A stretch of 64,000 nt of DNA from Pseudomonadota bacterium (GTDB lineage: Bacteria; Pseudomonadota; Alphaproteobacteria; Acetobacterales; Acetobacteraceae). Both the position numbers and the translations under genes were made by a program. A model generated the notes under the pieces. The model saw nothing but the letters and a program-made list of their open reading frames with translations. It was not told where the DNA came from and did not search any database. The DNA is taken from positions 1 through 64,000 of the forward strand of contig JAKBAD010000010.1 of assembly GCA_021809435.1 (NCBI GenBank), written 5' to 3'. Below, one piece after another: positions 2,571 through 27,923 of the stretch. Positions within the stretch are counted from its first letter, which is position 1. Each line of letters starts with the position of its first letter.

Positions 2571-4070
2571 CTATTGGCCTAGAAACTGGGCGGCACGGGT
2601 TTGCAGAGCGGCCACCATTTCAGGGGGCATGGCGTTCAATGTCTTGTAGGCCAGGGCAAGACGCGGGTTGCCCTTCAGCAGGGTTTGGTTGCTGACCAGG
2701 AAGTTCCAGTACAAGGCATTGAAGGGGCAGGCCCGTTCGCCCAGCTTTTGTGTCGGATCAAACCTGCAAGACCGGCAATAATCTGACATGCGGTTGATAT
2801 AGGCGCCCCCCGCGGCATAAGGTTTACTGGCCAGCAGCCCGCCGTCGGCATAGAGCACCATGCCCGAAACATTTGGCAGTTCGACCCATTCAAACGCATC
2901 GGCATAGACCAGCAGATACCATTCATTCACCGCTGCCGTATCTATGCCTGCGAGCAGCGCATAATTACCCAGAACCATCAGGCGCTGGATGTGATGCGCA
3001 TAGGCATTGGCCTTGGTCTCTTGCACGCACTGGTGCAGGCAGTTCATGTCGGTTTTGCCGGTCCAGTAAAAATCGGGCAAGGGGCGTTTGGCGCCAAGGG
3101 CGTTGAGGGTGGCGTAGCCCGGCATTTTCAGCCAATAGAGGCCCCGCACATATTCGCGCCAGCCCAGAATTTGGCGGATGAATCCCTCGGTGGCGTTCAA
3201 TGGCACAGCCCCCGCCCGGTAGGCGGCTTCTGCGGCGGCCACGCATTCGCCCGGCAGCAGTAGGCCGCAATTGAGATACAGAGCGATATGCGCATGAAAC
3301 AATAACGGTTCGCCTTGGCGCATGGCATCCTGATAATCCCCAAACCGCGGCAGGCGATCGGCGATGAAGCGATGTAGAGCCGCCTGTGCGCCTGCGCGTG
3401 TAACAGCATGGGTGAACGGATACAGATCACCGAAATGGTTGCCGAACTCCCGCTCCACCAGGGTCAGAACCTGGCTCGTGATGTCGTCGGGCGGTTCGGT
3501 GTAAGAGGGGGGCACCTCGATTTCGCGCGGCAGGGGCTTGCGGTTTTCTGTGTCAAAATTCCATTGCCCACCAATCGGCTTGCCACCTTGCATCAGCACG
3601 CCAAGGCGGGTGCGCAGGGTGCGGTAAAAATATTCCATGCGCAATTGCTTCCGGCCCTCTGCCCATGTGGCAAAGTCAGCCCGGGTGGAGAGGAAGCGGG
3701 TATCCTCGACCAACTCTGCCCCAAGATCGCGCAGGGCCAGCATCACGCGATGCTCGCCAGGCCAAGTGGCAATGATGCTCCGAGTATTGTGGCGGCGGCA
3801 AGCCCGCTCAATTTCTCCCGTAAAACTCTGCGTGTTGGCGGGATCGTCGAGCGTCACATACTCCACCTGCCATCCAACGCTCCGCAACTCCTGGGCGAAA
3901 TGGCGCATGGCGGAGAGAATAAAGGCGATTTTCTTTTGGTGATGGCGGGGCGTCACAGCCTCTTCGCGCACCTCCATCATCAGCACCACGTCGTTGGTCT
4001 TGTCGGCCAATGCCAGGCTTGGCAGGCCCAGGCTCAATTGATCGCCCAGCACGGGAAAGAGACGTGTCAT
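2571..4070 (-). CDS. phrB: FeS-type photolyase/cryptochrome (DPRP family, PhrB-like)
   Basis: A 499-residue member of the deoxyribodipyrimidine-photolyase-related (DPRP) family. Its characterised member Agrobacterium PhrB is a (6-4) photolyase with FAD, a lumazine antenna and a 4Fe-4S cluster. The N-terminus [16 protein letters not shown] is typical. Near the C-terminus, YCRSCRFDP...GERACPFN supplies three cysteines with C-x2-C-x12-C spacing, matching the cluster ligands of PhrB. The predicted role is light-driven repair of UV (6-4) photoproducts; a sensory role cannot be excluded. Its ATG overlaps the stop of the upstream photolyase by four bases, so the two are translationally coupled. It is the last gene of the leftward operon starting at 7337, whose promoter resembles that of rpoE-chrR. 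Confidence 0.93.
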
Positions 4071-5542
4071 GAGAATAAATCCGTGGCGATGGCGGGTTTG
4101 TTGCGGCGGCGCGGGGAGGGGCGTTTGCGGCTGCCGTGCTGGTGCGCGATGGCGAGCGCGATTTCTCGGTGTCCGGGCATCTTGCGCAACGTGTAAACCT
4201 GGGTGAGCGCGGCTTTACGGGCCTGTACGTCATCCACAATGGGCGGCGGGTAGTTGGACGGCGGCTGCGGCGCCACCCAGGGCGTGTGAATGAGCCCGGC
4301 CGGCAGATGCGCGATCTCGGGGACAAAGGCGCGGATGAAGGCACCGTCAGGATCCTGCTCCACCCCTTGCTTCACCGGGTTATAAACGCGCAGCGTATTG
4401 ATGCCCGTGGTGCCCGCCTGCATTTGCATTTGCGGGTAATGAATGCCCGGCTCGTAATCAGCGAACAGCCGGGCCAGATGGCGGGCGGGCGCGCGCCAAT
4501 CCAGCCATAATATTTGGCACGCGAAGCTGACCAGCATGGCCCGCATACGAAAATTGATCCAGCCAGTGCGCGTGAGTGCACGCATACAGGCATCGACCAT
4601 TGGGTAGCCCGTCTGCCCCGTGGCCCATGCGGTAAAGAGACCTTCATCATGGCCGCGCAGCCCGTCATAGGCCGGATGCAAATTCCGGATCTCCAGCATT
4701 GGTTCGCTTTCCAGTTTCTGAATGAAATGGCAGTGCCAATGCAGGCGCGATTCAAAGGCCCGCAGCCCCAGTGGCCAGCCGCCACGCTGGAGGGACGGGA
4801 TGGCGGAGATTTCACGCTGGCGTCGCTTAACGGCCTGTACCACCTCGCGCAACGACAGCGTGCCCAGGCTCAGCGGCACCGAGAGGCGCGACCCATGCAG
4901 CGCGGCATGAGTTGGCGAGGATATGGCGCGCGCATAGCTTGCTCCGGCCGAGGTGAGAAAATTGCCCAGCCGAGCAATGGCGGCGCGGCGCCCAGGAAAC
5001 AGCCCGGATGTGTCAAACTCTTCCGGTTCCGGCAGGGTGTCGCTTGGCAGAGAGGCGGGCGCGGGCAGAACAGGCGCGCGATAGGCGGGTTCGTCCATCA
5101 CCCCGCGCCAGAGCGCATCCCATTCATCGCGGCTGCTTAAGCGCCGAACCACCGCGCCATTTTGATATTCATGCCAGGCCACGCCGGTTTTGCGTGCCCA
5201 GCGCGCCAGCGCGCGGTCGCGTTGATAAGTCCAGAGTGTGCCTGTCTCCTGATGCGACCAGAGCGTGAAACCTGGAAATTGGCGGGCGAGGCGGGCGAAT
5301 ACCTCCAGGGCTTCGCCCACCTGCACCACCAGCCTTTGCCCGCGCTGCTCCAGGCTTGCCTGCAAATCCTGCAACGCGGCATACAGGCAGGCGTAATGGC
5401 GCGGGCTCATGTCGGGTTGGCGCCACAAATCGGGCTCATGAATATAGAGGGCGATCAGCGGTCCGGGGCGTTGGGCGGCATGCCAGAGCGGCGCGTGGTC
5501 GTGCAGGCGCAGATCGCGCTTGAACCAGACGATCTGGGTCAT
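4067..5542 (-). CDS. DNA photolyase / cryptochrome family protein (FAD-binding)
   Basis: A 491-residue flavoprotein with an N-terminal photolyase Rossmann domain starting [19 protein letters not shown] and a helical FAD domain. The FAD region contains [13 protein letters not shown] and [12 protein letters not shown]. The usual Asn/Trp-rich FAD motif of CPD photolyases is replaced by [20 protein letters not shown], which marks a divergent subfamily. CPD repair is therefore likely but not proved. The ATG at 5542 is preferred over one 18 bases upstream because it forms a 4-base ATGA overlap with the stop of the DUF1295 gene and aligns with family N-termini. The tail (about residues 470-485) is Arg/Lys-rich. 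It lies in the apparent RpoE-ChrR regulon beside a second photolyase. Confidence 0.9.
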
Positions 5543-6312
5543 TTCGGCCAGCGCGGCCACATGGCGTTGGTGCGGGCCACATAGGCATCGTAAACGGCGC
5601 CCCGGCGCGCGCGCATGGCGGTTTCAAGCGGTGGCACGCCCGTGAGATAGCGCAGCACCAGGAACATGAGCACGGGAGCGATGAAGGAAAGCCACGTCAC
5701 GGGCCGGGCGGGTTCCAGCGCGATGAGCGGATAGGCCAGCCAGGCCAGCGCCTCACATAAGTAATTCGGGTGCCGGCAGAGTGACCATAGCCCTGTCTCG
5801 CATATGCCCCCTTCAGTGCCGGGCCGGGTGCGCCAGACGCGCAGCTGATGGTCGGCCAGGGCTTCGCCGGCCAGGGCCAGGGCCAGCACGCAGGCACCGG
5901 CAATATCTGCCCCCCGCAGTGCCGCCACCGGCTGTGCCGCGGCCAGATAAACGGAGACGGCCAGCAAGCCGCTCACGGGCCCCTGCCCGGAGATCAGTTT
6001 CAGCATCTGACCTTGAAATGCCGGTCCGGCGGCCGCGCGCATCATGGCGTAGCGTGTGTCTTCCGGGCCAGAGGCCACGCGCCACGCAATATGCCCTCCC
6101 AAACGCGCCGCCCAGGCCATAATGAGCGTGGCCAGCAGGGCGTGTCGCCAAAATGCGCCGGGTGCCGCCAAGGCGACGGCCGCTAACGCCAAACCAGTCG
6201 AGAACGTCCAAACCACATCGATCCATCCGGCATTACCGGCGGCACGCTGCAAGGCCCAGGCCAGCAGCATGGCCAGCGATACGAACACGCCGGCATAAAG
6301 ACAAACACTCAC
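5539..6312 (-). CDS. DUF1295-family membrane protein (steroid 5-alpha-reductase-like fold)
   Basis: A 257-residue polytopic membrane protein. The C-terminal half carries the DUF1295/isoprenylcysteine-methyltransferase-like pattern [16 protein letters not shown] followed by a hydrophobic pair and [22 protein letters not shown]. Related proteins are membrane-embedded reductases or methyltransferases that act on lipids; its substrate is unknown. The start is taken as GTG at 6312 because that gives a 4-base GTGA overlap with the upstream methyltransferase stop. The longer alternative start at 6417 would overlap that gene by over 100 bases. Its position between a CFA-type methyltransferase and photolyases suggests a role in fatty-acyl modification under photo-oxidative stress, which is inference. 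Confidence 0.85.
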
Positions 6313-7337
6313 GGCACCGGCGCCAGCAGATAGTGGCTCACCCCCCAGGGCTTGCCGCCGCCATGGCCGAACAACCCCTCGGTTGCCAAAAAAAACAGCC
6401 GCCAGCGCCGCGCCCATAATGTGGCTTGTGCGCCATATACGGTGTTGAGAATCCTGTCGATTTCGGTGGCGTTGGCGTCAAACCGAGCAAGCCAGTGGCG
6501 TGCCGTGCGGGCGTAATGGCGGCCGCTCCAGCGCCAATCGCGTTCTTGAATAAACAGGTCGGGGAAGGCGGCGGCCAAGTCGTGGCTGGGCATGAGGCCG
6601 CCGGTGAAAAAATGCTGGGCGATCCAGTCTGACCGGTCGGTATGGTCAAACCGGTAGGGGGTGGTGGCATGGGTGAAGACATGCAAAAACAGCTTGCCCT
6701 GCGGTTTCAACCAGCCCCGCACCCGCGCCAGCAGCGCCCGCCAATTCGCCATATGTTCGAACATTTCGACCGACACCACGCGATCAAATTTTTGATCTGG
6801 CGCGAAATCGTTCATGTCGGCGGTGATAACGCGCAGATTGCCAAGCCCCCGGGCCCGCGCTTCAGCCTCGATATGGAGGCGTTGCGGATTGGAGTTGGAG
6901 ACAGCGGTAATGCGCGCACCCGGAAAGCGCTGCGCCATGAACAAGCTGAGAGACCCCCAGCCACAACCCAGCTCCAGAATCTCCTGGCCGTCTTCGAGCA
7001 CCGCATGGGCTGCGGTTTCCTCCAAGGCGTGTTGCTCGGCCTCCGCCAGTGTTTCGCGCCCCGTGGGGTAGAGGCAGCAGGAATATTTCCGGTTCGGCCC
7101 CAGAATGAGACCAAAAAACTCAGGCGGCAATTCATAATGCTGGCGGTTGGCGTCTTCGGTGTGCAGGGCGATGGGGTAGGCCTCCATCTCACGGGCGAAC
7201 GCCAGCACATCTTGGCCGCTGCGCGTCTGGGCAAAATTCGTGCGCCCGACGAGGGCCGAGATCCCCAGGCGCAAGAGCGTGTCAGGCACGGGGGCGGTTT
7301 CGGCAAGATGGGCCAGACGGGCCGGTAACGTGCTCAT
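6309..7337 (-). CDS. CFA-synthase-type SAM-dependent methyltransferase
   Basis: A 342-residue SAM-dependent methyltransferase of the cyclopropane-fatty-acid-synthase superfamily. It has HYELPPEFFGLILG in the N-terminal part, the SAM-binding motif LELGCGWGSLSLFMA near residue 145, and the post-motif SVEMFEHMANW. It resembles the coclaurine-methyltransferase-like branch more than classical Cfa, so methylation of an unsaturated acyl chain is more likely than ring formation. It is the first gene of the leftward operon with DUF1295 and two photolyases. The operon is preceded by a TGATCC-N16-CGTA promoter about 150 bases upstream of the ATG. Rhodobacter sphaeroides has a comparable CFA-like methyltransferase in its RpoE regulon, used in furan fatty-acid synthesis. 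Confidence 0.9.
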   Translation of the reverse strand: MSTLPARLAHLAETAPVPDTLLRLGISALVGRTNFAQTRSGQDVLAFAREMEAYPIALHTEDANRQHYELPPEFFGLILGPNRKYSCCLYPTGRETLAEAEQHALEETAAHAVLEDGQEILELGCGWGSLSLFMAQRFPGARITAVSNSNPQRLHIEAEARARGLGNLRVITADMNDFAPDQKFDRVVSVEMFEHMANWRALLARVRGWLKPQGKLFLHVFTHATTPYRFDHTDRSDWIAQHFFTGGLMPSHDLAAAFPDLFIQERDWRWSGRHYARTARHWLARFDANATEIDRILNTVYGAQATLWARRWRLFFLATEGLFGHGGGKPWGVSHYLLAPVP

Positions 7338-7483
7338 ATTTGCCTCCTGGGGCGTGAGGGGATGAACGCAAATATAACCGCCAGGCGCTTGGCCAACCTA
7401 CCGGGGGCACTCACCAACGCCGCCGGCGCTGGGCGGAGAGCTTGGTGGCCTGGATATTGATCTGGTGCATTCACGTGGCATCA

Positions 7484-7509
7484 TACGCGGTTGTGCGCGC
7501 CATGGATCA
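7484..7509 (-). promoter_or_regulatory. ECF (RpoE/ChrR-type) promoter for leftward methyltransferase-photolyase operon
   Basis: On the minus strand TGATCC (7509-7504) is followed after exactly 16 bases by CGTATG (7487-7482). The same hexamer, spacing and CGTA core precede rpoE-chrR. ECF sigma factors of the RpoE-ChrR group are known to use TGATCC-type -35 elements. The predicted transcript would carry a leader of about 140 bases before the ATG at 7337. Confidence 0.8.
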
Positions 7510-7513
7510 GGAC

Positions 7514-7541
7514 TGATCCGGAAACCTTGGCGCGCCGTACT
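7514..7541 (+). promoter_or_regulatory. ECF (RpoE/ChrR-type) promoter for rightward FAD-oxidoreductase operon
   Basis: TGATCC at 7514-7519, a 16-base spacer, then CGTACT at 7536-7541. The -35 element lies only four bases from the divergent one, giving back-to-back promoters. A transcript starting about 7 bases past the -10 would have a leader under 20 bases, with AAGGA at 7554-7558 and ATG at 7566. Confidence 0.83.
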
Positions 7542-7565: not shown

Positions 7566-8852
7566 ATGGAGCATGCAACAACGCGGCAGCGCATTGCGGT
7601 GGTGGGCGGGGGGATTACCGGTCTCTCCTGTGCGTGGCTGCTCGCTCAGCGCCATGAGGTGACGCTGTTTGAGGCTCTGCCGCGCTTAGGGGGGCATAGC
7701 CATACGGTAGAGGTTGGCGGCGCGCCGGTGGATACCGGCTTCATTGTCTATAACGAACCCGCTTATCCCAACCTCACCGCGCTGTTCGCGCATCTGGGCG
7801 TGGCAACCGATCCGACCGACATGTCATTTTCCGTTTCGCTCAACGAGGGCGGGCTTGAATATGCCGGCTCGGGCCTGCGAGCTTTGTTTGCCCAGCCGCG
7901 CAATCTCCTGCGGCCCAGATTTTGGGCGATGCTGCGCGATTTGGTGCGCTTTTACCGTACGGCGCCGCAGGATTGCGCCAAGCTCGGCGAGGTCAGCCTG
8001 GGCGCATATTTACGCCAGGGCCAATATGGCGAGGCGTTTTTGCACGATCATCTCTACCCGATGATCGCCGCCGTGTGGTCCTGTCCGGCGGGCAAGGCGG
8101 CCGATTTACCGGCTGCCGCCTTTATTCGCTTTTGTGAAAATCACGGGCTGCTGAAACTGACTGGCCGGCCGCTATGGCGCACCGTGCGCGGTGGCTCGCG
8201 TGAATATGTGTCCCGCCTGCGCGCGGCATATTCGGGCATCCTTCGCCAGGGCGAACCCGTGACGGCGCTGACCCGCCGGCCCGATGAGGTACTGCTCAGT
8301 ACGGCATCGGGCACTGAGCGGTTCGACCAGGTGGTGCTCGCCTGTCATGCCGATGAGGGGTTGGCGCTGTTGAACGACCCCACGGCTGCCGAGCGCGATA
8401 TCATCGGCGCCTTCCGCACCACGCCCAATGAGGTGATCTTGCATCAGGACAAGGCGGCGATGCCACGCCGCCCCCGGGCCTGGGCGGCATGGAATTATCT
8501 GGGCGGGGCGCAGACTGTCGCGGTGACCTATTGGATGAACCAGTTGCAACGCCTGCCTGGCGGGCAAGATTGGTTTGTGACCCTCAACCCCTTGCGGCCC
8601 TTGCGTCGCGCCGTGCTGCGGCAGATTTTTACCCACCCCGTGTTTGACCTGCCCGCCCTGCGCGCCCAGGCGCGGCTGTGGGAGGTGCAGGGCGTCAACC
8701 GCACGTGGTTCTGCGGCGCGTGGTGGGGGGCGGGATTTCACGAGGACGGGTTGCAGGCGGGGCTGGCGGTGGCCGAAACGCTGGGGGGCGTGAGCCGCCC
8801 ATGGCGCGTTGCCAACCAAAATGGGCGCATCCCGGCGCCGCCCGCGCCATGA
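7566..8852 (+). CDS. NAD(P)/FAD-dependent oxidoreductase (flavin amine oxidase-like)
   Basis: A 428-residue flavoprotein. The dinucleotide-binding motif IAVVGGGITGLSCAWLLA sits at the N-terminus, followed by LPRLGGHSHTV and DTGFIVYNEPAYPNLTALF, all typical of the family found beside cfa genes. In Rhodobacter sphaeroides a flavin-oxidase homologue in the RpoE regulon acts in fatty-acid modification, so acyl-chain desaturation or oxidation is a reasonable proposal. The ATG at 7566 is chosen because AAGGA lies seven bases upstream and because longer starts would precede the predicted transcription start. Its stop overlaps the DUF1365 start (ATGA). It is the first gene of a five-gene operon. Confidence 0.9.
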   Translation: MEHATTRQRIAVVGGGITGLSCAWLLAQRHEVTLFEALPRLGGHSHTVEVGGAPVDTGFIVYNEPAYPNLTALFAHLGVATDPTDMSFSVSLNEGGLEYAGSGLRALFAQPRNLLRPRFWAMLRDLVRFYRTAPQDCAKLGEVSLGAYLRQGQYGEAFLHDHLYPMIAAVWSCPAGKAADLPAAAFIRFCENHGLLKLTGRPLWRTVRGGSREYVSRLRAAYSGILRQGEPVTALTRRPDEVLLSTASGTERFDQVVLACHADEGLALLNDPTAAERDIIGAFRTTPNEVILHQDKAAMPRRPRAWAAWNYLGGAQTVAVTYWMNQLQRLPGGQDWFVTLNPLRPLRRAVLRQIFTHPVFDLPALRAQARLWEVQGVNRTWFCGAWWGAGFHEDGLQAGLAVAETLGGVSRPWRVANQNGRIPAPPAP

Positions 8853-9616
8853 ACGCGCTTTACAGCACGCGTGTCACACACACGCGCACTCGCCCGCGCC
8901 GGCATCATCTGGCCTACAGGCTGCCTTATTTGCTGTTGGACCTCGATCATCTCCCCACCGCCCCACTCTTCTCACGCAACCGCTTCAACCTGTTCAGCCT
9001 GCATGAACGTGACCATGGCGATGGCGTGACACCCCTGCGCGCATGGGTGGCGGCGCGCTTGGCCGAGGCCGGGCTGGCTGAAGCGGAGTGCCGCATAACG
9101 CTGCTCACCTTGCCGCGTTTCTTGGGGTTGGGGTTCAACCCGCTCAGCCTGTTTCTGTGCCACGACACCCAAGGCGCGCTGCGGGCCGTGCTTTACGAGG
9201 TAAATAACACGTTCGGCCAGCGGCATCATTATCTTTGCCCGGTGGCGGCGGGGACCCGGGCACCGCTGCGCCAGAGCGCCGAGAAGGTCTTCTATGTATC
9301 TCCCTTCATGGATATGGGCCTACGCTACCGCTTCACCCTCACCCCGCCAGGCGAAGCGGTTGGGCTCCATATCGCCGTTGAGGATTCCCAAGGCCCCATG
9401 CTGCGCGCCACATTGGCGGGCACAAGCCAGCCTTTTACCAACGCGGTCTTGCTGCGCGCCGCGCTGGTGCATCCGCTGCTGGGCGTCAAGGTGCTGGCCG
9501 CGATTCATTGGGAGGCGCTTAAGATATGGCTGAAAGGCTTTGGTCTGCGGCCGCGCCCCGCGCCACCCGTCACACCGGTCACATATGGCCAGGACCTGAC
9601 CAGGAGTTCCACATGA
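8849..9616 (+). CDS. DUF1365 family protein
   Basis: A 255-residue protein of the DUF1365 family, nearly always encoded between an FAD oxidoreductase and a cfa gene. The diagnostic stretches are RNRFNLFSLHERDHGDG and FLGLGFNPLSLFLCHD, followed by EVNNTFGQRHHY. Its biochemical role is not established; context indicates membrane-lipid modification. The ATG at 8849 overlaps the previous stop by four bases, and its own TGA overlaps the cfa ATG the same way. No signal peptide or strong membrane segment is seen. Confidence 0.9.
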   Translation: MNALYSTRVTHTRTRPRRHHLAYRLPYLLLDLDHLPTAPLFSRNRFNLFSLHERDHGDGVTPLRAWVAARLAEAGLAEAECRITLLTLPRFLGLGFNPLSLFLCHDTQGALRAVLYEVNNTFGQRHHYLCPVAAGTRAPLRQSAEKVFYVSPFMDMGLRYRFTLTPPGEAVGLHIAVEDSQGPMLRATLAGTSQPFTNAVLLRAALVHPLLGVKVLAAIHWEALKIWLKGFGLRPRPAPPVTPVTYGQDLTRSST

Positions 9617-10804: not shown

Positions 10805-11191
10805 ATGAAACAGCTCGCTGCGCTCTATGTCGCCACGGCGATGGTGTTTTTGGGGTTGGATGCCGTGTGGCTGAGCACCATGGCTAACCGGCTCTACAAG
10901 CCTGCCCTCCAAGGGGTATTGGCGGCAAATTTCCGCCCGGTTCCGGCGCTCCTGTTCTACATGCTCTATATCGGCGGCATTGTCGGTTTCGCTGTGCTGC
11001 CCGCCGAGAAGCCGCTGGGGGCGCTGCTGCGGGGGGCGGCGTTTGGGCTGGTCGCCTACGCCACCTATGACCTCACCAACCAGGCGACATTGGCGCGCTG
11101 GTCCACCCGGGTCACGCTGGCGGATCTCGCCTGGGGCGCGCTGGCCACGGCCGTGGCGGCCGCCGTGGCCAGGGCCATGGTGCGCGTATGA
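10805..11191 (+). CDS. DUF2177 family membrane protein
   Basis: A 128-residue integral membrane protein with about four hydrophobic segments. The N-terminal VFLGLDAVWLSTMANRLY and the YATYDLTNQATL stretch are characteristic of DUF2177. The function of the family is unknown; members often sit with cfa/DUF1365 clusters. It begins four bases after the cfa stop, with GAGG just upstream, and ends with a 4-base overlap into the SDR gene, so it is part of the same operon. Confidence 0.88.
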   Translation: MKQLAALYVATAMVFLGLDAVWLSTMANRLYKPALQGVLAANFRPVPALLFYMLYIGGIVGFAVLPAEKPLGALLRGAAFGLVAYATYDLTNQATLARWSTRVTLADLAWGALATAVAAAVARAMVRV

Positions 11192-11910
11192 GCGCGCTTG
11201 GCCCGCGCGCGGTGGTGTTTGGCGCTGGCGGCGCGATTGGCGGCGCGTTGGTGGACGAACTGGCCAATCGCGGTGTTGCCGAAATCCACGCCCTCTCGCG
11301 CCATCCCGGCCGGGCGCCCGCACCCGTGCACACTGATTATGCCGATATACTCGATGAACCATCCCTGGCGGAGGTGGCATTGCGCCTGGGGGCTATGGGA
11401 GCGCTCGATACCGTGATCGTTGCCACAGGTTTGCTGCATGGCGCCGGGCTCTCGCCCGAAAAAGCCTTGCGTGATTTGCGTCCGGAGGCGATGGCGACGC
11501 TGTTTGCCGTGAATTGCACCGGCCCGGCGTTGGTCATGAAGCATTTTCTGCCCTTGCTGGCGCGCGACCGCCCCGCCCGGTTTGCCGTGCTTTCGGCGCG
11601 TGTGGGCAGCATCTCCGATAATCATAAAGGCGGCTGGTATGGCTACCGCGCGGCTAAGGCGGCCTTGAACATGATGGTGCGCGGCGCGGCCATAGAGACC
11701 GCGCGGCGTGCACCGCAGGCCGTGGTATTGGCGTTGCATCCGGGCACGGTGGAAAGTCCGCTCTCACGCCCCTTCCAGGGCTTTATTCCCAAATCACATC
11801 TGACTTCCCCGGTTCAGGCGGCAAAAAATCTGCTGAACGTTCTGGAGGCCGCCAATATTGAACAATCCGGTCGGCTACTGGCCTATGATGGGCAGGAAAT
11901 TGCCCCCTGA
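11188..11910 (+). CDS. short-chain dehydrogenase/reductase
   Basis: A 240-residue SDR-family oxidoreductase. It has an N-terminal nucleotide motif VVFGAGGAIGGALVDELA and the catalytic pair in YRAAKAALNMM (Tyr-x3-Lys). The sequence resembles the CsgA/C-factor-like SDR branch. The substrate is unknown; position as the last gene of the oxidoreductase-DUF1365-cfa-DUF2177 operon suggests a lipid-derived carbonyl or reactive aldehyde, which is inference. The R. sphaeroides RpoE regulon also contains an SDR in its equivalent cluster. Its stop directly abuts the end of the converging membrane-protein gene. Confidence 0.88.
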   Translation: MSALGPRAVVFGAGGAIGGALVDELANRGVAEIHALSRHPGRAPAPVHTDYADILDEPSLAEVALRLGAMGALDTVIVATGLLHGAGLSPEKALRDLRPEAMATLFAVNCTGPALVMKHFLPLLARDRPARFAVLSARVGSISDNHKGGWYGYRAAKAALNMMVRGAAIETARRAPQAVVLALHPGTVESPLSRPFQGFIPKSHLTSPVQAAKNLLNVLEAANIEQSGRLLAYDGQEIAP

Positions 11911-12468
11911 TCAGCCGCGCAGACGGGCATAGGTCATGCCTAAAAAGGCCGTCAACATACCAACACTGGCGGCGTTGAGGGTACGCAACGCCTGAAGCTG
12001 GACCGGGGTGAAGTGCAGCAATGGTGAAATTAACCAACCGGCATTGCCGTGGCTGAGATAAAGCGCGATCGGCGGCGCCATGAGCGCGAAGCTGAGCCAG
12101 CGTTCACGCGTGGTGAATGAGAGTGTCGCGAGGCTGATACAGGGCAGCAAGAACAGCTCGACCCCAGACGCGCCCCCCAGCAACTTGGCGCACCACAGCG
12201 TGTTGAGGGTTCCCAGTGCCGGCAAGGCCGCCCGCGCGGCGCGCGGATGAGAGCGGGCCAGCAAAGCGATGGCCAGAAACAGCGGGCTGGCCAGCATGGT
12301 GATGAAGACCGGCGCGGCGGCGGGCCCGATCATGACATAGAGCGACAACGGATAGACCGGGCCATTGGCGCCGATGACGGTTGAGATCAGGCAGGTGGCA
12401 CGGGTCAGCGGATCGAGGGTGGCGATATCTGAGCGGAGACGGCGGAGGGTGATCATATCATGCTTCAC
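11911..12468 (-). CDS. predicted membrane protein of unknown function
   Basis: A 185-residue protein with several hydrophobic segments (around residues 38-75, 80-125 and 128-180) and no recognised domain. It starts 35 bases after the upstream DUF6134 gene and is probably cotranscribed from the ECF promoter at 13214. A function cannot be assigned from the sequence. Its association with the RpoE-ChrR-type promoter is the main clue. An ATG four codons into the frame is a possible alternative start. Confidence 0.65.
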   Translation of the reverse strand: MKHDMITLRRLRSDIATLDPLTRATCLISTVIGANGPVYPLSLYVMIGPAAAPVFITMLASPLFLAIALLARSHPRAARAALPALGTLNTLWCAKLLGGASGVELFLLPCISLATLSFTTRERWLSFALMAPPIALYLSHGNAGWLISPLLHFTPVQLQALRTLNAASVGMLTAFLGMTYARLRG

Positions 12469-12503: not shown

Positions 12504-13157
12504 TCAGCCATCGCGGCGCAAATAGCGGATGGCAGAGCCATCCTTGCCGGTAAAGCCCAGGCTGAGCCAGCTATTATCCCGGCCATACCAAAGGTCGAGC
12601 CCGACATCGCCCGAAAGCCGGTAATGCTGCCCGTTGGCCACACCGCCATTCGCCAGAGGCACCTGCTCCTCGCCCAGAGCGGCGACATGCGGATGGGTAA
12701 GCTTGCCGGTCTGCGGATTGATCCAGGGGCCGTTCAACTCGGCGATATTCCAATGCGTGGCGGGCAACGCATGGGGCGGCGCGAAATAGGTCATGGTGCC
12801 CGTGCCTTCAACCATAAGTCCCGAGGGTGTGAGATCGGCGCGCATATGATCGGCCTTGCCGTCGTCATTGGTGCGGGTCTCGATGTGGAACATGCGCCCC
12901 CCCGCCCATTGTTCGATACCATCCATTTGATAATGAAACAAACGAATCGGTCCAAAAAACACATCGATGCGGACGGCGATGTTAATGGTGAGGTCGCCGT
13001 TGCGTTGCGCGAAATCCAGCGTGTGTGTGCCTATCTGATGGCCCTTGCGCCATATCTCGAACGCCAGCCGGCCGCGCGGAGGCACCGATTGCGCCCACGC
13101 CCGCTGTTTGTAGGCGAGAAACCCTGAGAACCCCAATAAATAATCACGCCGCCGCAT
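12504..13157 (-). CDS. DUF6134 family exported protein
   Basis: A 217-residue protein with an N-terminal export-type segment (MRRRDYLLGFSGFLAYKQRAWA). The body resembles the DUF6134 family: LAFEIWRKGHQIGTHTLDF, a paired DVFFGPIRLFHYQMDGIEQW and a later LPATHWNIAELNGPWINPQTG. Members are predicted beta-rich periplasmic or lipid-associated proteins of unknown activity. A two-arginine motif may indicate Tat export but is weak. It is immediately downstream of an ECF promoter (13189-13214), with a short leader of about 20 bases and no clear ribosome-binding site. Confidence 0.72.
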   Translation of the reverse strand: MRRRDYLLGFSGFLAYKQRAWAQSVPPRGRLAFEIWRKGHQIGTHTLDFAQRNGDLTINIAVRIDVFFGPIRLFHYQMDGIEQWAGGRMFHIETRTNDDGKADHMRADLTPSGLMVEGTGTMTYFAPPHALPATHWNIAELNGPWINPQTGKLTHPHVAALGEEQVPLANGGVANGQHYRLSGDVGLDLWYGRDNSWLSLGFTGKDGSAIRYLRRDG

Positions 13158-13188: not shown

Positions 13189-13214
13189 TACGCGCCGAAC
13201 CGGTGATTGGATCA
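13189..13214 (-). promoter_or_regulatory. ECF (RpoE/ChrR-type) promoter for DUF6134 gene pair
   Basis: On the minus strand TGATCC (13214-13209) is followed after exactly 16 bases by CGTAGA (13192-13187). It matches the three other promoters of this type in the window in hexamer, spacing and CGTA core. The predicted start of transcription is about 23 bases before the ATG at 13157. Confidence 0.8.
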
Positions 13215-23391: not shown

Positions 23392-25677
23392 ATGGCCCTT
23401 ACCCATTCTCTCGGATATCCGCGCATCGGCGCCAAACGCGAGCTGAAATTCGCGCTCGAAGCCTATTGGAAAGGGGCGTCCTCGCGTGAGGCGTTGCAGG
23501 AGCTGGGCGCCCAGTTGCGGGCCCGCCACTGGCGCGACCAGTCCGGGCTCGATTTGGTGCCCGTGGGCGAGTTTTCGTTCTACGACCAGGTGCTCGACAT
23601 GAGCGTCACGCTCGGCAATTTACCCGCCCGCGTGCGGGGGTTTCACGGCGATGCGCTGGATAATTATTTCCGCATTGCCCGTGGCCGCTCGGCCGAGGAC
23701 CACGCCGCGTGCTGCGGCGTAGCGGCGGGCGAGATGACCAAATGGTTCGACACGAATTACCATTACATCGTGCCTGAATTCGATGCTGGCACCAGTTTCA
23801 CGCTTAATGCCACGCGCCTGCTCACCCAATTTGGCGAGGCCAAGGCCCAGGGCGTGGCCGCCAAGCCGGTGATCATCGGGCCCGTCACCTATCTGGCGCT
23901 TGGCAAGGCCAAGGATGGCACCGACAAGCTCGCGCTGTTGCCCAGACTATTGCCCGCCTATGCCGAACTCCTGGCCGTATTGGCCAATGCCGGCGCCGAA
24001 TGGGTGCAAATCGACGAGCCCCTTCTGGTCACCGAGCTCGATGCCGCCTGGCGTGACGCCTTCAAGACCGCCTATGCCGCGCTCGACACGGGGGGCGTGA
24101 AGCTGCTGCTCGCCACGTATTTCGGAAGGTTGCTGGAAAATCTGCCGCTCCTGGCCGCGCTTCCCGTGCAAGGCGTGCATCTCGATGCCGTCAATGCCCG
24201 TGATGAGGTTGAGGCGCTGGTGGCGGCCTGCCCGCCTGAGCGGGTCATTTCGCTGGGTGTGGTCAATGGCCGCAATATCTGGAAGACCGATCTGGAAGCC
24301 GTGCTGGCGTGGCTGGAGCCGGTGGCCGAACGGCTGGGAGACCGGTTGTGGCTGGCGCCAAGCTGTTCGCTGCTGCATGTGCCGGTCGATCTGGCGTTTG
24401 AGCAGAAGCTCGATGGTGAGATCAAACCCTGGCTCGCATTTGCCGTGCAGAAGCTCGAGGAGCTTCTGGTGCTGGCGAAAGCCCTGAACCAGGGGCGTGG
24501 GGCCGTGGCCGCTCAGCTTAGTGCCAATGCGGCCGCCATTGCGGCCCGTCGGTCGTCAAAACGGGTGCATAATCCGGCGGTGAAGGCGGCGGTTGCAGCT
24601 ATCACGCCCGCGCTCGGCCGCCGCCAGAGCCCATTTGCCGTGCGCGCGGCCAAGCAGGCGGCTTGGCTCAACCTGCCGCTCTTTCCCACCACCACCATCG
24701 GCTCTTTTCCCCAGACCAAAGAGATCCGCCAAACGCGCAGCGCCCTCAAGGCCGGTACGCTCGATGAGGCGGCCTATAAAACCGCCATGCGCCGCGAAAT
24801 CGCCCATGCCGTGCGCGCACAGGAGGAGCTGGGGCTGGATGTGTTGGTGCATGGCGAGGCCGAGCGCAACGACATGGTGGAGTATTTTGGTGAACAGTTG
24901 GATGGCTACGCGTTCAGCCAGAATGGCTGGGTGCAGTCTTACGGCTCGCGCTGCGTCAAGCCGCCAATCCTGTTTGGCGATATCAGTCGCCCCAGGCCGA
25001 TGACGCTGGAATGGATTGGTTATGCCGCCTCACTCACCGCCAAGCCCATGAAGGCCATGCTCACCGGCCCGGTCACCATTCTCAACTGGTCTTTCGTGCG
25101 CGATGACCAGCCGCGTTCTGTCTCCTGCACCCAACTCGCTTTGGCCATCCGCGCGGAGGTGCAAGACCTCGAAAAAGCCGGGATCCGGATCATCCAGATC
25201 GATGAAGCCGCGCTCCGCGAGGGCCTGCCGCTGCGCCGGGCCGAGTGGCAGGGCTATCTTGACTGGGCCGTCGGCGCGTTTCGCGTCACGGCCAATGGCG
25301 TGGCGGATGAAACCCAGATCCACACCCATATGTGCTATTCCGAATTCAACGACATCATTCAGGCCATTGCCGGCATGGATGCCGATGTCATCACCATTGA
25401 AACCTCGCGCTCGGACATGGAACTGCTCGATGTGTTCGAGAGCTTCAAGTACCCCAACGATATCGGCCCCGGTGTCTATGACATCCACGCCCCCAACATT
25501 CCCGCGCCAGCGCAGATATTGGCGCTGATGAAGAAAGCGGCGGCGCGCATTCCGGCGGAACGCCTGTGGGTGAACCCTGATTGCGGGTTGAAGACGCGCC
25601 AATGGAGCGAGGTGATGCCCGCGCTCGCCAATCTTGTCGCCGCCGCGCGCACCCTGCGGGCCGAGGCCGCCCAATGA
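23392..25677 (+). CDS. metE: cobalamin-independent methionine synthase
   Basis: Transfers the methyl group of 5-methyltetrahydropteroyl-triglutamate to homocysteine. At 761 residues it has the full two-barrel length. The N-terminal [18 protein letters not shown] and the C-terminal [15 protein letters not shown] mark the two halves. Zinc ligands are seen in [10 protein letters not shown] and [11 protein letters not shown]. The ATG at 23392 follows AGGTGG and matches the family start; an in-frame start nine bases earlier is less likely. It overlaps metF by four bases. metE is used although the genome also has a B12-dependent enzyme (nrdJ) nearby. Confidence 0.97.
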
Positions 25678-26600
25678 ACGCCCTCGCCCCCACCTTGCGC
25701 CGCTGGCTGGCGGGCGAGCGTATCGGGCCGCTGCCCCCGCGTGATGCCGGGCAGCCGCCGCCCGCGCTCTCGTTTGAGTTCTTTCCCCCCAAAACTCCCG
25801 CGCTCGAGGAGCAGCTCTGGGCGTGCATCCGTCGGCTTGCGCCGCTCGCGCCGCGTTTCGTCTCGGTCACGTACGGCGCGGGCGGCAGCACGCATGAGCG
25901 CACGCACGCCACCGTCTCACGCCTGATCCGTGAAACCAGCCTGGTGCCCGCCGCCCACCTCACCTGCGTGGGCGCAACGCGCGAGGAGGTGGATGGCATC
26001 GCCCGCGCCTATTGGCAGGCGGGCGTGCGGCATATTGTGGCGCTGCGGGGCGATGCGCCAAGCGGTACGGCTTACGTGCCTCACCCGGGCGGCTATGCCT
26101 ATGCCAGCGATCTGGTCGCGGGGCTGCGCCGGGTCGCCGATTTCGAGGTCTCGGTTGCGGCTTACCCCGAAACCCACCCAGCAGCCGTCAACCCGGCGGC
26201 TGATCTCGATAATCTCAAGCGCAAGCTCGATGCCGGGGCGACCCGCGCCATCACCCAGTATTTTTTCGACAGCGCGACCTATCTGCGCTTTCTCGACCGT
26301 GCCTTGGCGGCAGGCATCACCGCGCCCATCGTGCCTGGTATCATGCCGGTCTCGAATTTCGAGCAGGCCGCGCGGTTCTCGGCCCTGTGCGGTACCAGCG
26401 TGCCAGTCTGGCTCAGGGATTTGTTCGAGGGAACCGAGAACGATCCCGAGATCAGGCGCATTGTGGCGAGCATCGTGGCGGCCGAGCAGGTGCGCACGCT
26501 TCAGGCCAACGGGGTGGATGAGTTTCATTTCTACACCCTCAACCGCCCGGAGCTGACCTACGCCATCGCCCATATTCTCGGTGTGCGCCCGCGCGGGTAA
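25674..26600 (+). CDS. metF: 5,10-methylenetetrahydrofolate reductase
   Basis: Reduces 5,10-methylene- to 5-methyl-tetrahydrofolate, providing the methyl donor for MetE. The 308-residue FAD-dependent TIM barrel shows [33 protein letters not shown] and [12 protein letters not shown], then [14 protein letters not shown] and [11 protein letters not shown]. The ATG at 25674 forms an ATGA overlap with the metE stop, so the two are coupled. It lies just upstream of rpoE. Confidence 0.96.
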
Positions 26601-26629: not shown

Positions 26630-26657
26630 TGATCCGTGCCACGGTGGGACGCGTAAA
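26630..26657 (+). promoter_or_regulatory. ECF promoter of rpoE-chrR (autoregulation)
   Basis: TGATCC at 26630-26635, a 16-base spacer, then CGTAAA at 26652-26657. This is the same pattern seen at 7484, 7514 and 13189. Autoregulation of rpoE-chrR from such a promoter is known in Rhodobacter sphaeroides. The predicted first transcribed base is at or next to the GTG at 26665. Confidence 0.8.
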
Positions 26658-26664
26658 GAGACCC

Positions 26665-27294
26665 GTGAATGCCATCGACACTCCCCTCTTTCTGGCGCCA
26701 AGCCAGACCCGTGTGCCGCCGGTGACGGCGCTGGATGCCGCTGCCCCCGATGCCGCAGCGCTGGCGGCGCTGATCGGGCGGGTCGCCGCCGCCCGGGATC
26801 GCACGGCCTTCGCGGCCCTGTACAAGCATTTCGCCCCGAGGGTGAAGGCCTATCTGGTGCGGGCTGGCATGGTAGGGGGAGAGGCTGAGGATGTTACCCA
26901 AAACGTCATGCTGACGCTCTGGCGCAAAGCCGAATATTTCGACCCCGCCCGCGCCGGAGCGGCGACCTGGGTGTTCGCGATCGCGCGCAATGCGCGCATC
27001 GACCATGCCCGTCGCAAGCGGGAGGTGGCGATGCCCGATATGGAAGAGCCCGAGGCGCCAGACACCGCCCCCTCAGCCGAAGCCCTGACCCTTGCCGCCG
27101 AGCGTGATACCCGCCTGCGTGGCGCGCTCAACACCCTGACCCCCGAACAACGACAGATCGTGCAGCTCTCTTTTTTCTCAGATACCCCCCATGCTGCCAT
27201 TGCCAGCGCGCTCAACCTGCCCCTGGGCACCGTCAAGTCGCGTATCCGTCTTGCCATGGGCAAGCTCCGCGCCGTGCTGGAGGAGGGGCTGTGA
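26665..27294 (+). CDS. rpoE: ECF sigma factor, RpoE/ChrR group
   Basis: A 209-residue group IV sigma factor. Region 2 includes FAALYKHFAPRVKAYLVRAG and TWVFAIARNARIDHARR; region 4 includes LTPEQRQIVQLSFFSDTPHAAIASAL and LGTVKSRIRLAMGKLR. Similarity and the adjoining ChrR-type anti-sigma gene identify the singlet-oxygen-responsive class. The start is taken as GTG at 26665; this coincides with the predicted transcription start, so the mRNA may be leaderless or nearly so. A GTG at 26722 is an alternative. The stop overlaps chrR by four bases. Its predicted targets in this window are the fatty-acid-modification/photolyase operons and the DUF6134 pair. Confidence 0.93.
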   Translation: MNAIDTPLFLAPSQTRVPPVTALDAAAPDAAALAALIGRVAAARDRTAFAALYKHFAPRVKAYLVRAGMVGGEAEDVTQNVMLTLWRKAEYFDPARAGAATWVFAIARNARIDHARRKREVAMPDMEEPEAPDTAPSAEALTLAAERDTRLRGALNTLTPEQRQIVQLSFFSDTPHAAIASALNLPLGTVKSRIRLAMGKLRAVLEEGL

Positions 27295-27923
27295 TCAAAC
27301 ATCATCCTTCCGCTGAGACATTGTTGTCCCACGCCGCGGGCACTTTGGCGGCCGGTCACGCGCTGGTGGTGGCCGCGCACATAGAAGGCTGCGCCCACTG
27401 CCAGGCCGAATTGGCGCGACTGGAGGCCACGGGCGGCGCGCTGCTCGATGAGATCTCCCCCGCGGCGATGGAGCCGGAGGCTTTCGCCGAGCTGTTGGCC
27501 CGGCTCGATGAGCCCGCCCCGCCGCCGCCGCCCGCGCCCCGCCAAGCCGAGCTCGCCCTGCCTCCCGGGCTGCGCCTGCCCAAAGTGCTCAAAACCGCTG
27601 AGATTGGGCGCTGGCGGTGGATTGGTCCTGGCGTGCGCCACGCCAAGGTGCGCCTGCCCTGGGCGCGGGAGCAGACCCTCATGCTGCTCCGCGTGGCGGG
27701 CGGGCGGCGGGTTATTCACCACAGCCATGGCGGTGCCGAATTCACGCAGGTGCTCTGGGGTGGGTTTCATGACCATACCGGCCAGTATGGTCCGGGCGAT
27801 ATTGGTGAAGCCGACGAGACCACCCTGCACCAGCCGGTTGCCGACGAGGAAGGCTGCATCTGCCTCGCATCGCTCGAAGGCGGCTTGCGACTGCCCTGGC
27901 TGAGCCGGCTGTTCGGCGGATAA
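27291..27923 (+). CDS. chrR: ChrR-type zinc anti-sigma factor with cupin domain
   Basis: A 210-residue two-domain protein that binds and holds RpoE. The N-terminal anti-sigma domain has the zinc ligands H-x3-C-x2-C (H30, C34, C37), with a His at 4 or 5 as the fourth ligand. The C-terminal cupin domain (from about residue 125) contains HHSHGGAEFTQVL and a later His, matching the metal site of R. sphaeroides ChrR that is needed for the singlet-oxygen response. A Pro-rich linker lies around residues 75-88. It starts with a GTG overlapping the rpoE stop. Confidence 0.94.
   Translation: MIKHHPSAETLLSHAAGTLAAGHALVVAAHIEGCAHCQAELARLEATGGALLDEISPAAMEPEAFAELLARLDEPAPPPPPAPRQAELALPPGLRLPKVLKTAEIGRWRWIGPGVRHAKVRLPWAREQTLMLLRVAGGRRVIHHSHGGAEFTQVLWGGFHDHTGQYGPGDIGEADETTLHQPVADEEGCICLASLEGGLRLPWLSRLFGG

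What the first reader, a model, noticed from the sequence alone, without database searches (positions are those of the whole stretch)
7484..7541. Back-to-back TGATCC-N16-CGTA promoters drive two divergent operons of the stress regulon
On both strands of one short intergenic space there is an exact TGATCC, a 16-base spacer and CGTA. The two -35 elements are four bases apart. The identical pattern precedes rpoE-chrR (26630) and the DUF6134 pair (13189). A uniform-base estimate for this 10-base pattern over both strands of 64 kb is about 0.12 chance matches, yet four were found, all directly upstream of start codons. The ChrR-type sigma system thus appears to control these nine genes.
Basis: partly seen in the sequence, partly recalled or inferred. 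Interest (0 to 1): 0.85.

Follow-up and report, generated by a model that had tools for sequence, protein, structure and literature searches.

The report
Divergent singlet-oxygen promoters, one inherited
Two back-to-back stress promoters of a well-known bacterial singlet-oxygen response drive membrane-lipid and DNA-repair genes here, and one of them appears to be a promoter left behind when the sigma-factor gene it used to drive was lost from this spot.

Summary
Four exact TGATCC-N16-CGTA sites lie in the window (0.12 expected); the two at 7484-7539 are back to back, 4 bases apart. The motif is the printed consensus of the RpoE/ChrR (ECF11) sigma system, which the window encodes. The operons are a UfaD-UfaO-UfaM-type furan-fatty-acid operon (right) and a CMAS methyltransferase-DUF1295-photolyase operon (left). 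The regulon reading is supported, and largely already known.

New here: in 12 of 12 same-genus relatives with a close ufaD (58% identity or more), the pair separates ufaD from rpoE-chrR. Only in the window has rpoE-chrR gone, to 26.6 kb. The left promoter's 146-nt leader still carries an rpoE-like start, 17 bases identical at the same offset in relative G400. It is most likely the old rpoE promoter, now serving a lipid methyltransferase operon. None of 119 exact pairs elsewhere shows this gene pairing.

Two wider patterns are unproven: rpoE starts 8 or 9 nt after CGTA in 85 of 109 loci, suggesting leaderless mRNA; gaps between -35 elements favour 4-7 and avoid 8-11 bases.

The parts
7484..7509 (-). 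ECF11-type promoter of the left operon (TGATCC-N16-CGTA); most likely the former rpoE promoter
   Evidence: relatives
7514..7539 (+). ECF11-type promoter of the right (ufaD-like) operon
7334..7474 (-). 46-codon leader frame starting with a GTG 9 nt after CGTA, like rpoE in relatives; its TGA overlaps the ATG of the next gene (ATGA); probable remnant of rpoE
6309..7337 (-). CMAS-family (cyclopropane-synthase-like) methyltransferase, called CMAS2 here, first full gene of the left operon; FufM-like function is only a guess
   Evidence: Pfam PF02353
5539..6417 (-). DUF1295 protein (ORF start not fixed; overlaps the gene before)
4067..5560 (-). DNA photolyase (PF03441, PF00875)
2571..4070 (-). photolyase-related protein (PF04244)
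7566..8852 (+). UfaD-type flavin amine-oxidase-family protein
   Evidence: start and distance
8678..9616 (+). UfaO-type DUF1365 protein (ORF start not fixed; overlaps the gene before)
   Evidence: DUF1365 = UfaO domain per PMC7380195
9526..10800 (+). UfaM-type CMAS methyltransferase (ORF start not fixed)
10805..11191 (+). DUF2177 protein
11188..11910 (+). short-chain dehydrogenase
13189..13214 (-). ECF11-type promoter before the DUF6134 gene
12504..13157 (-). DUF6134 protein
11911..12468 (-). 185-aa protein, no Pfam or NCBIfam match; homologues lie in the same cluster in some relatives
26630..26655 (+). ECF11-type promoter of rpoE-chrR at its present place
26665..27294 (+). RpoE (ECF sigma factor); GTG start 9 nt after CGTA
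27291..27923 (+). ChrR anti-sigma factor

Best explanation
The two sites are back-to-back promoters of the RpoE-ChrR (ECF11) singlet-oxygen sigma system. When ChrR lets go of RpoE, RpoE-RNA polymerase starts transcription in both directions. To the right it reads a UfaD-UfaO-UfaM-type operon (furan fatty acids), to the left a CMAS methyltransferase-DUF1295-photolyase operon. The left promoter is inherited: in the ancestor, as in the close relatives, it drove rpoE-chrR. In this genome rpoE-chrR was lost from here (a copy with its own promoter sits at 26.6 kb), so the old promoter and a stub of rpoE became promoter and 146-nt leader of the lipid and photolyase operon. Shown: motif, gene families, gene order in relatives, shared rpoE start sequence. 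Inferred: transcription, induction by singlet oxygen, enzyme products, and the order of the loss and the move.
For: Motif and enrichment. Printed consensus. Sigma and anti-sigma identity. Exact sites on both sides, with rpoE opposite ufaD, in 12 of 12 same-genus relatives that have a close ufaD (G405). 77 of 119 pairs elsewhere are rpoE|ufaD, 101 of 119 have rpoE on one side, and 0 of 119 are CMAS2|ufaD. The rpoE start codon is 9 nt after CGTA in all 12 relatives, in the window's present rpoE and in the leader frame. Rpoe remnant: 17 exact bases at the same offset as G400 (score 34; best of 300 shuffles 32) and a gapped match to G385 (27; best of 300 shuffles 24). CMAS2 directly follows chrR in G408 and G400. 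One full-length ChrR in the window genome (a second hit is weak, E 9e-4).
Against: No expression data. The leader does not match the rpoE 5' regions of 6 of the 8 relatives tested above the best of their 300 shuffles (G408, G396, G398, G392, G394, G406), as expected for a fast-changing N-terminus but weak as proof. The best match to the window's own rpoE is not at the start. Four same-genus genomes with a more distant ufaD (45-51% identity) have no such pair. Two of nine genome-wide matches look like chance.
Confidence: 0.82

Rival explanations
1. The promoters are real ECF11 promoters, but the left one arose with the methyltransferase operon itself; rpoE-chrR was never between them in this lineage, and the rpoE-like start in the leader is chance.
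For: In L066 ufaD and CMAS2 are divergent with motif-like sites 37 bases apart, one of them with a mismatch, while rpoE has another place. Six of eight relatives give no leader match above shuffles.
Against: 17 exact bases at the same offset in G400, a match in G385 at the same offset, and the GTG at exactly 9 nt as in the rpoE of all 12 close relatives. All 12 have rpoE there.
Confidence: 0.13
2. Compatible with the best explanation: the present rpoE-chrR is not the moved original but a copy from another lineage (displacement), after which the old copy decayed at the divergent site.
For: ufaD and CMAS2 place the window genome with G385 (support 0.94 and 0.99, FastTree), but RpoE+ChrR place it with G391/G389/L030 (89/88); a G000+G385 clade is rejected at AU p 0.014. 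RpoE is 66% identical to G385 while ufaD is 80%.
Against: A G000+G385+G405 clade is not rejected (p 0.14), G405 is absent from the ufaD and CMAS2 trees, and the clade tests were chosen after seeing trees. Either way the promoter inheritance stands.
Confidence: 0.45
3. Chance matches or another regulator's sites.
For: Two of nine matches in the genome look like chance.
Against: 0.12 expected, 4 found in the window; the exact pair recurs in 15 of 384 other class genomes and in 70 of 394 genomes of another family, with zero control matches in either sample.
Confidence: 0.02

Closest known systems
RpoE-ChrR (ECF11) core regulon of Rhodobacter sphaeroides and relatives
   Same: Same promoter consensus, sigma/anti-sigma pair, and furan-fatty-acid genes in the core regulon (PMC6852236, passages); photolyase genes are listed with such promoters in Shewanella (PMC4336711, passages).
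   Different: Here rpoE-chrR is detached from ufaD, and the divergent partner is a methyltransferase-photolyase operon; no photosynthetic reaction centre family was found in the genome (PF00124).
UfaM/UfaD/UfaO furan fatty acid pathway (PMC7380195, passages)
   Same: Amine-oxidase-family, DUF1365 and CMAS genes in one operon; the paper names RPA2569, RPA2571 and RPA2570 as the R. palustris UfaM, UfaD and UfaO.
   Different: No direct sequence comparison with the tested enzymes was possible here; product unknown.
PSPTO_1043 regulon of Pseudomonas syringae (PMC5507510, passages)
   Same: The paper prints the consensus TGATCC-N16-CGTA, with rpoE-chrR and phrB among its promoters.
   Different: The other promoters in its table stand before different genes.

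Membership tests
ECF11 RpoE-ChrR system | ECF sigma factor nearest to R. sphaeroides RpoE | tested here: met
   Best PDB match 2q1z_A (RpoE, ECF SigE), E 1.5e-41; next best 4.2e-21; organism of the entry recalled
ECF11 RpoE-ChrR system | Adjacent ChrR with zinc anti-sigma domain and cupin domain, ligands kept | tested here: met
   2z2s_B E 4.7e-37; all eight ligand columns conserved by my reading of the alignment (H5, H30, C34, C37; H144, H146, E150, H180) (ligand list); TIGR02451 188 bits against cutoff 124.5. The stricter equivalog NF051881 is below its cutoff (170 of 300).
ECF11 RpoE-ChrR system | Target promoters TGATCC-N16-CGTA, one before rpoE itself | tested here: met
   sequence only
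ECF11 RpoE-ChrR system | ChrR inactivated and regulon induced by singlet oxygen | not testable with these tools
   needs an experiment
Furan fatty acid (Ufa) operon | UfaD, UfaO (DUF1365) and UfaM homologues together | tested here: inconclusive
   Families match; no R. sphaeroides or R. palustris enzyme sequence was in hand to test orthology
FufM (dimethyl-furan methylase) | Sequence relation to RPA0924 | not tested
   RPA0924 sequence not in hand; only a CMAS-family match

The most novel reading that the evidence does not exclude
In Alphaproteobacteria, and in some other Proteobacteria, the ECF11 sigma gene rpoE is translated from a leaderless mRNA, because its start codon sits on the transcription start of its own promoter. 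In this genome that leaderless start survived the loss of rpoE as a 46-codon leader frame that couples translation to a captured lipid-methyltransferase operon. The paired promoters also obey a preferred -35 spacing (4-7 bases, avoiding 8-11), which suggests that two polymerases on the shared region constrain each other.
Probability: 0.4. Interest if true: 0.62.

Novelty: new variant of a known kind. Interest (0 to 1): 0.45.

Why it matters
It looks like a clear case of a stress promoter outliving the regulator gene it served and being taken over by an effector operon. If the 8-9 nt rule means leaderless rpoE mRNA, the autoregulated step of a major singlet-oxygen response would use a different mode of translation start from many of its targets, which can be tested directly in R. 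sphaeroides or another laboratory alphaproteobacterium.

Tried and rejected
Rejected: chance motif. A phototroph setting: no Photo_RC match in the genome. A mobile or plasmid setting for the window: other genes include NusA, IF-2, SRP54-type GTPase and diaminopimelate epimerase families; no transposase or integrase family appeared among the proteins I scanned, which were not all ORFs of the window.

Helical phasing as the cause of the gap pattern: in the deduplicated set (133 clusters with gaps 0-30) the best period was 8.5, not 10.5, although 10.5 also beat a uniform null (p 0.0005). In the second sample without the repeats I had marked (63 of 71 sites) periods 10.5 and 11.0 had p 0.029 and 0.005; one search showed that one more of the 63 repeats a site, and one (G022) was already, so those two p values rest on slightly too many sites. 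Related genomes are not independent, so I claim only the 4-7 excess and 8-11 deficit, and both only as a lead.

An orthology test of CMAS2 with FufM was not possible without the R. palustris sequence. Whether rpoE-chrR moved or was displaced by a foreign copy stayed open. Papers: a search for back-to-back divergent promoters with ECF sigma factors (4 of 5 terms) gave 0 papers. Three leaderless searches gave 2, 11 and 65 papers (8 of the 65 listed), seen as listings except passages of PMC3616915; none of the listings or passages I saw reports leaderless ECF11 rpoE, but the library is partial and supplements were not read. A search for rpoE, chrR, ufaD, DUF1365 and divergent wording (3 of 5 terms) gave 3 papers, listing only there (one of them, PMC7380195, I read in passages).

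Full report
Observation. Shuffles give 0.12 on average, and none of 100 reached four. At 7484-7539 two sites face away from each other with GGAC between the hexamers. The genome (2.65 Mb) has nine matches against one for the reversed control.

What the genes are. Right operon: amine-oxidase-family (UfaD type), DUF1365 (UfaO type), CMAS (UfaM type), DUF2177, short-chain dehydrogenase. Left operon: CMAS (CMAS2 below), DUF1295, photolyase, photolyase-related protein. Third site: DUF6134 and a 185-aa protein without a family match. Fourth: rpoE-chrR. Outside the window, sites precede rpoH, folE and a gene with a photolyase FAD domain. Of the remaining two, one lies inside an Hsp20 gene with a 17-base spacer, and the other has no near gene in the right direction that I could identify; I count these two as probable chance.

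Known background. The consensus TGATCC-N16-CGTA is printed for PSPTO_1043 (PMC5507510, passages). Shewanella RpoE2 and R. sphaeroides Pos19 promoters have the same form (PMC4336711; PMC5036791; passages). A review states that the core regulon includes rpoE-chrR and furan-fatty-acid genes (PMC6852236, passages). UfaD, UfaO and UfaM make a methylated furan fatty acid (PMC7380195, passages). So the regulon as such is ordinary.

Relatives. I searched 41 genomes with the UfaD protein (the window's own, 24 others of its genus, 16 of its class). Of the 24, 12 have a close UfaD (58% identity or more). All 12 have exact sites on both sides of the space, with gaps of 4, 5, 5, 34, 28, 33, 33, 33, 6, 12, 13 and 4 bases, and in all 12 rpoE-chrR stands opposite ufaD (G405, whose ufaD is split between two contigs). 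Four more of the 24 have a more distant ufaD (45-51%: G407, G390, G393, G401), a photolyase-like gene beside it and no site pair within 350 bases upstream with up to one mismatch per site; they are a result against a genus-wide rule and look like another ufaD branch to me. The other eight gave weak or no hits. Among the 16 class genomes some have the pair (for example G001, G003, G004) and others with a UfaD match have none (for example G005, G006, G008, G010).

Of these, 77 are rpoE|ufaD, 101 have rpoE on one side, four are rpoE|CMAS2, none is CMAS2|ufaD (genes called by similarity to window proteins within 400 bases, so misses are possible). One of the 119 contigs, L066, has ufaD and CMAS2 divergent elsewhere on it, with sites 37 bases apart, one with a mismatch. 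The exact pair is found in 16 of 385 class genomes, the window's own included, and in 70 of 394 genomes of the family of G022, G022 included, whose nearest named loci in hand are Rhodobacteraceae (the family name is my inference). Control matches were zero in both.

Inherited promoter. In G408 and G400, CMAS2 follows chrR directly; in G385 a hydrolase-like gene lies between, by my reading of the ORF, and that gene has no match in the window genome. In the window, rpoE-chrR is between a methylenetetrahydrofolate reductase gene and a ribonucleotide reductase gene instead. The left leader reads, right after CGTA, nine bases and then GTGAATGCACCAGAT; G400's rpoE shares 17 bases at the same offset, and G385's rpoE start aligns over about 50. 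The other six of eight relatives tested did not beat their shuffles. The leader frame runs 46 codons to a TGA that overlaps the next gene's ATG. I take the left promoter as the former rpoE promoter. Trees of ufaD and CMAS2 join the window with G385, while RpoE+ChrR do not; displacement by another lineage's copy is possible but not shown.

Leaderless rpoE. Of 130 loci examined (119 from the scan, 11 relatives), 109 distinct ones have rpoE beside the pair; in 85 of these an in-frame ATG or GTG lies 8 (37) or 9 (48) nt after CGTA. Of the 24 that do not fit, 17 are Gammaproteobacteria by record title and my knowledge of the names. In the 12 close relatives the start is at 9 nt every time, as in the window's rpoE. 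On the ufaD side the figure is 9 of 94, and 44 of 94 have their most upstream in-frame start 26-35 nt away. On that side the base that follows eight bases after CGTA is a purine in 72 of 94, against 42 of 94 one base earlier, as expected of a transcription start; this is suggestive only. No start-site data were available to me. In S. meliloti all mapped leaderless transcripts begin with AUG (PMC3616915, passages), which speaks against GTG-started leaderless genes such as the window's.

Spacing. Gaps in 141 distinct sites of 0-30 bases, the window's included, depart from uniform (chi-square p 0.0002; 8-10 bases: 3 seen, p 0.0004, class chosen after seeing the data). In the second sample, all 71 sites counted: 4-7 bases 21 (9.2 expected), 8-11 bases 2 (9.2 expected). 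Without the 8 repeats I had marked: 18 and 2 of 63 (8.1 expected each). One search found one more repeat, with gap 29, which leaves 18 and 2 of 62. Kinship among genomes inflates such tests.

Verdict. An ordinary, well-conserved promoter set of a known regulon, correctly spotted, with an unusual local history and two general patterns worth a bench test.

Noticed in passing
26656-26667 and loci: rpoE start codon 8 or 9 nt after CGTA in 85 of 109 loci; possible leaderless rpoE mRNA.
   Followed up: partly
loci: -35 gaps of back-to-back ECF11 promoters favour 4-7 bases and avoid 8-11.
   Followed up: partly
11911-12468: 185-aa protein with no family match whose homologues lie in the same stress cluster in some relatives.
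   Followed up: no
L066 1756-1813 and 6405-6493: A contig with two divergent motif pairs in one cluster: rpoE|SDR and ufaD|CMAS2, the latter with one mismatch.
   Followed up: partly
L132: A MAG contig titled Klebsiella pneumoniae carries a distant rpoE-chrR with this promoter pair; probably a wrong label.
   Followed up: no
L032, L075: MAG contigs titled Solirubrobacterales and Chloroflexi carry the pair; transfer or binning error not tested.
   Followed up: no
25581-26600: The methylenetetrahydrofolate reductase gene before rpoE has a second copy in the genome (73% identity), and G400 has an 86% match.
   Followed up: no
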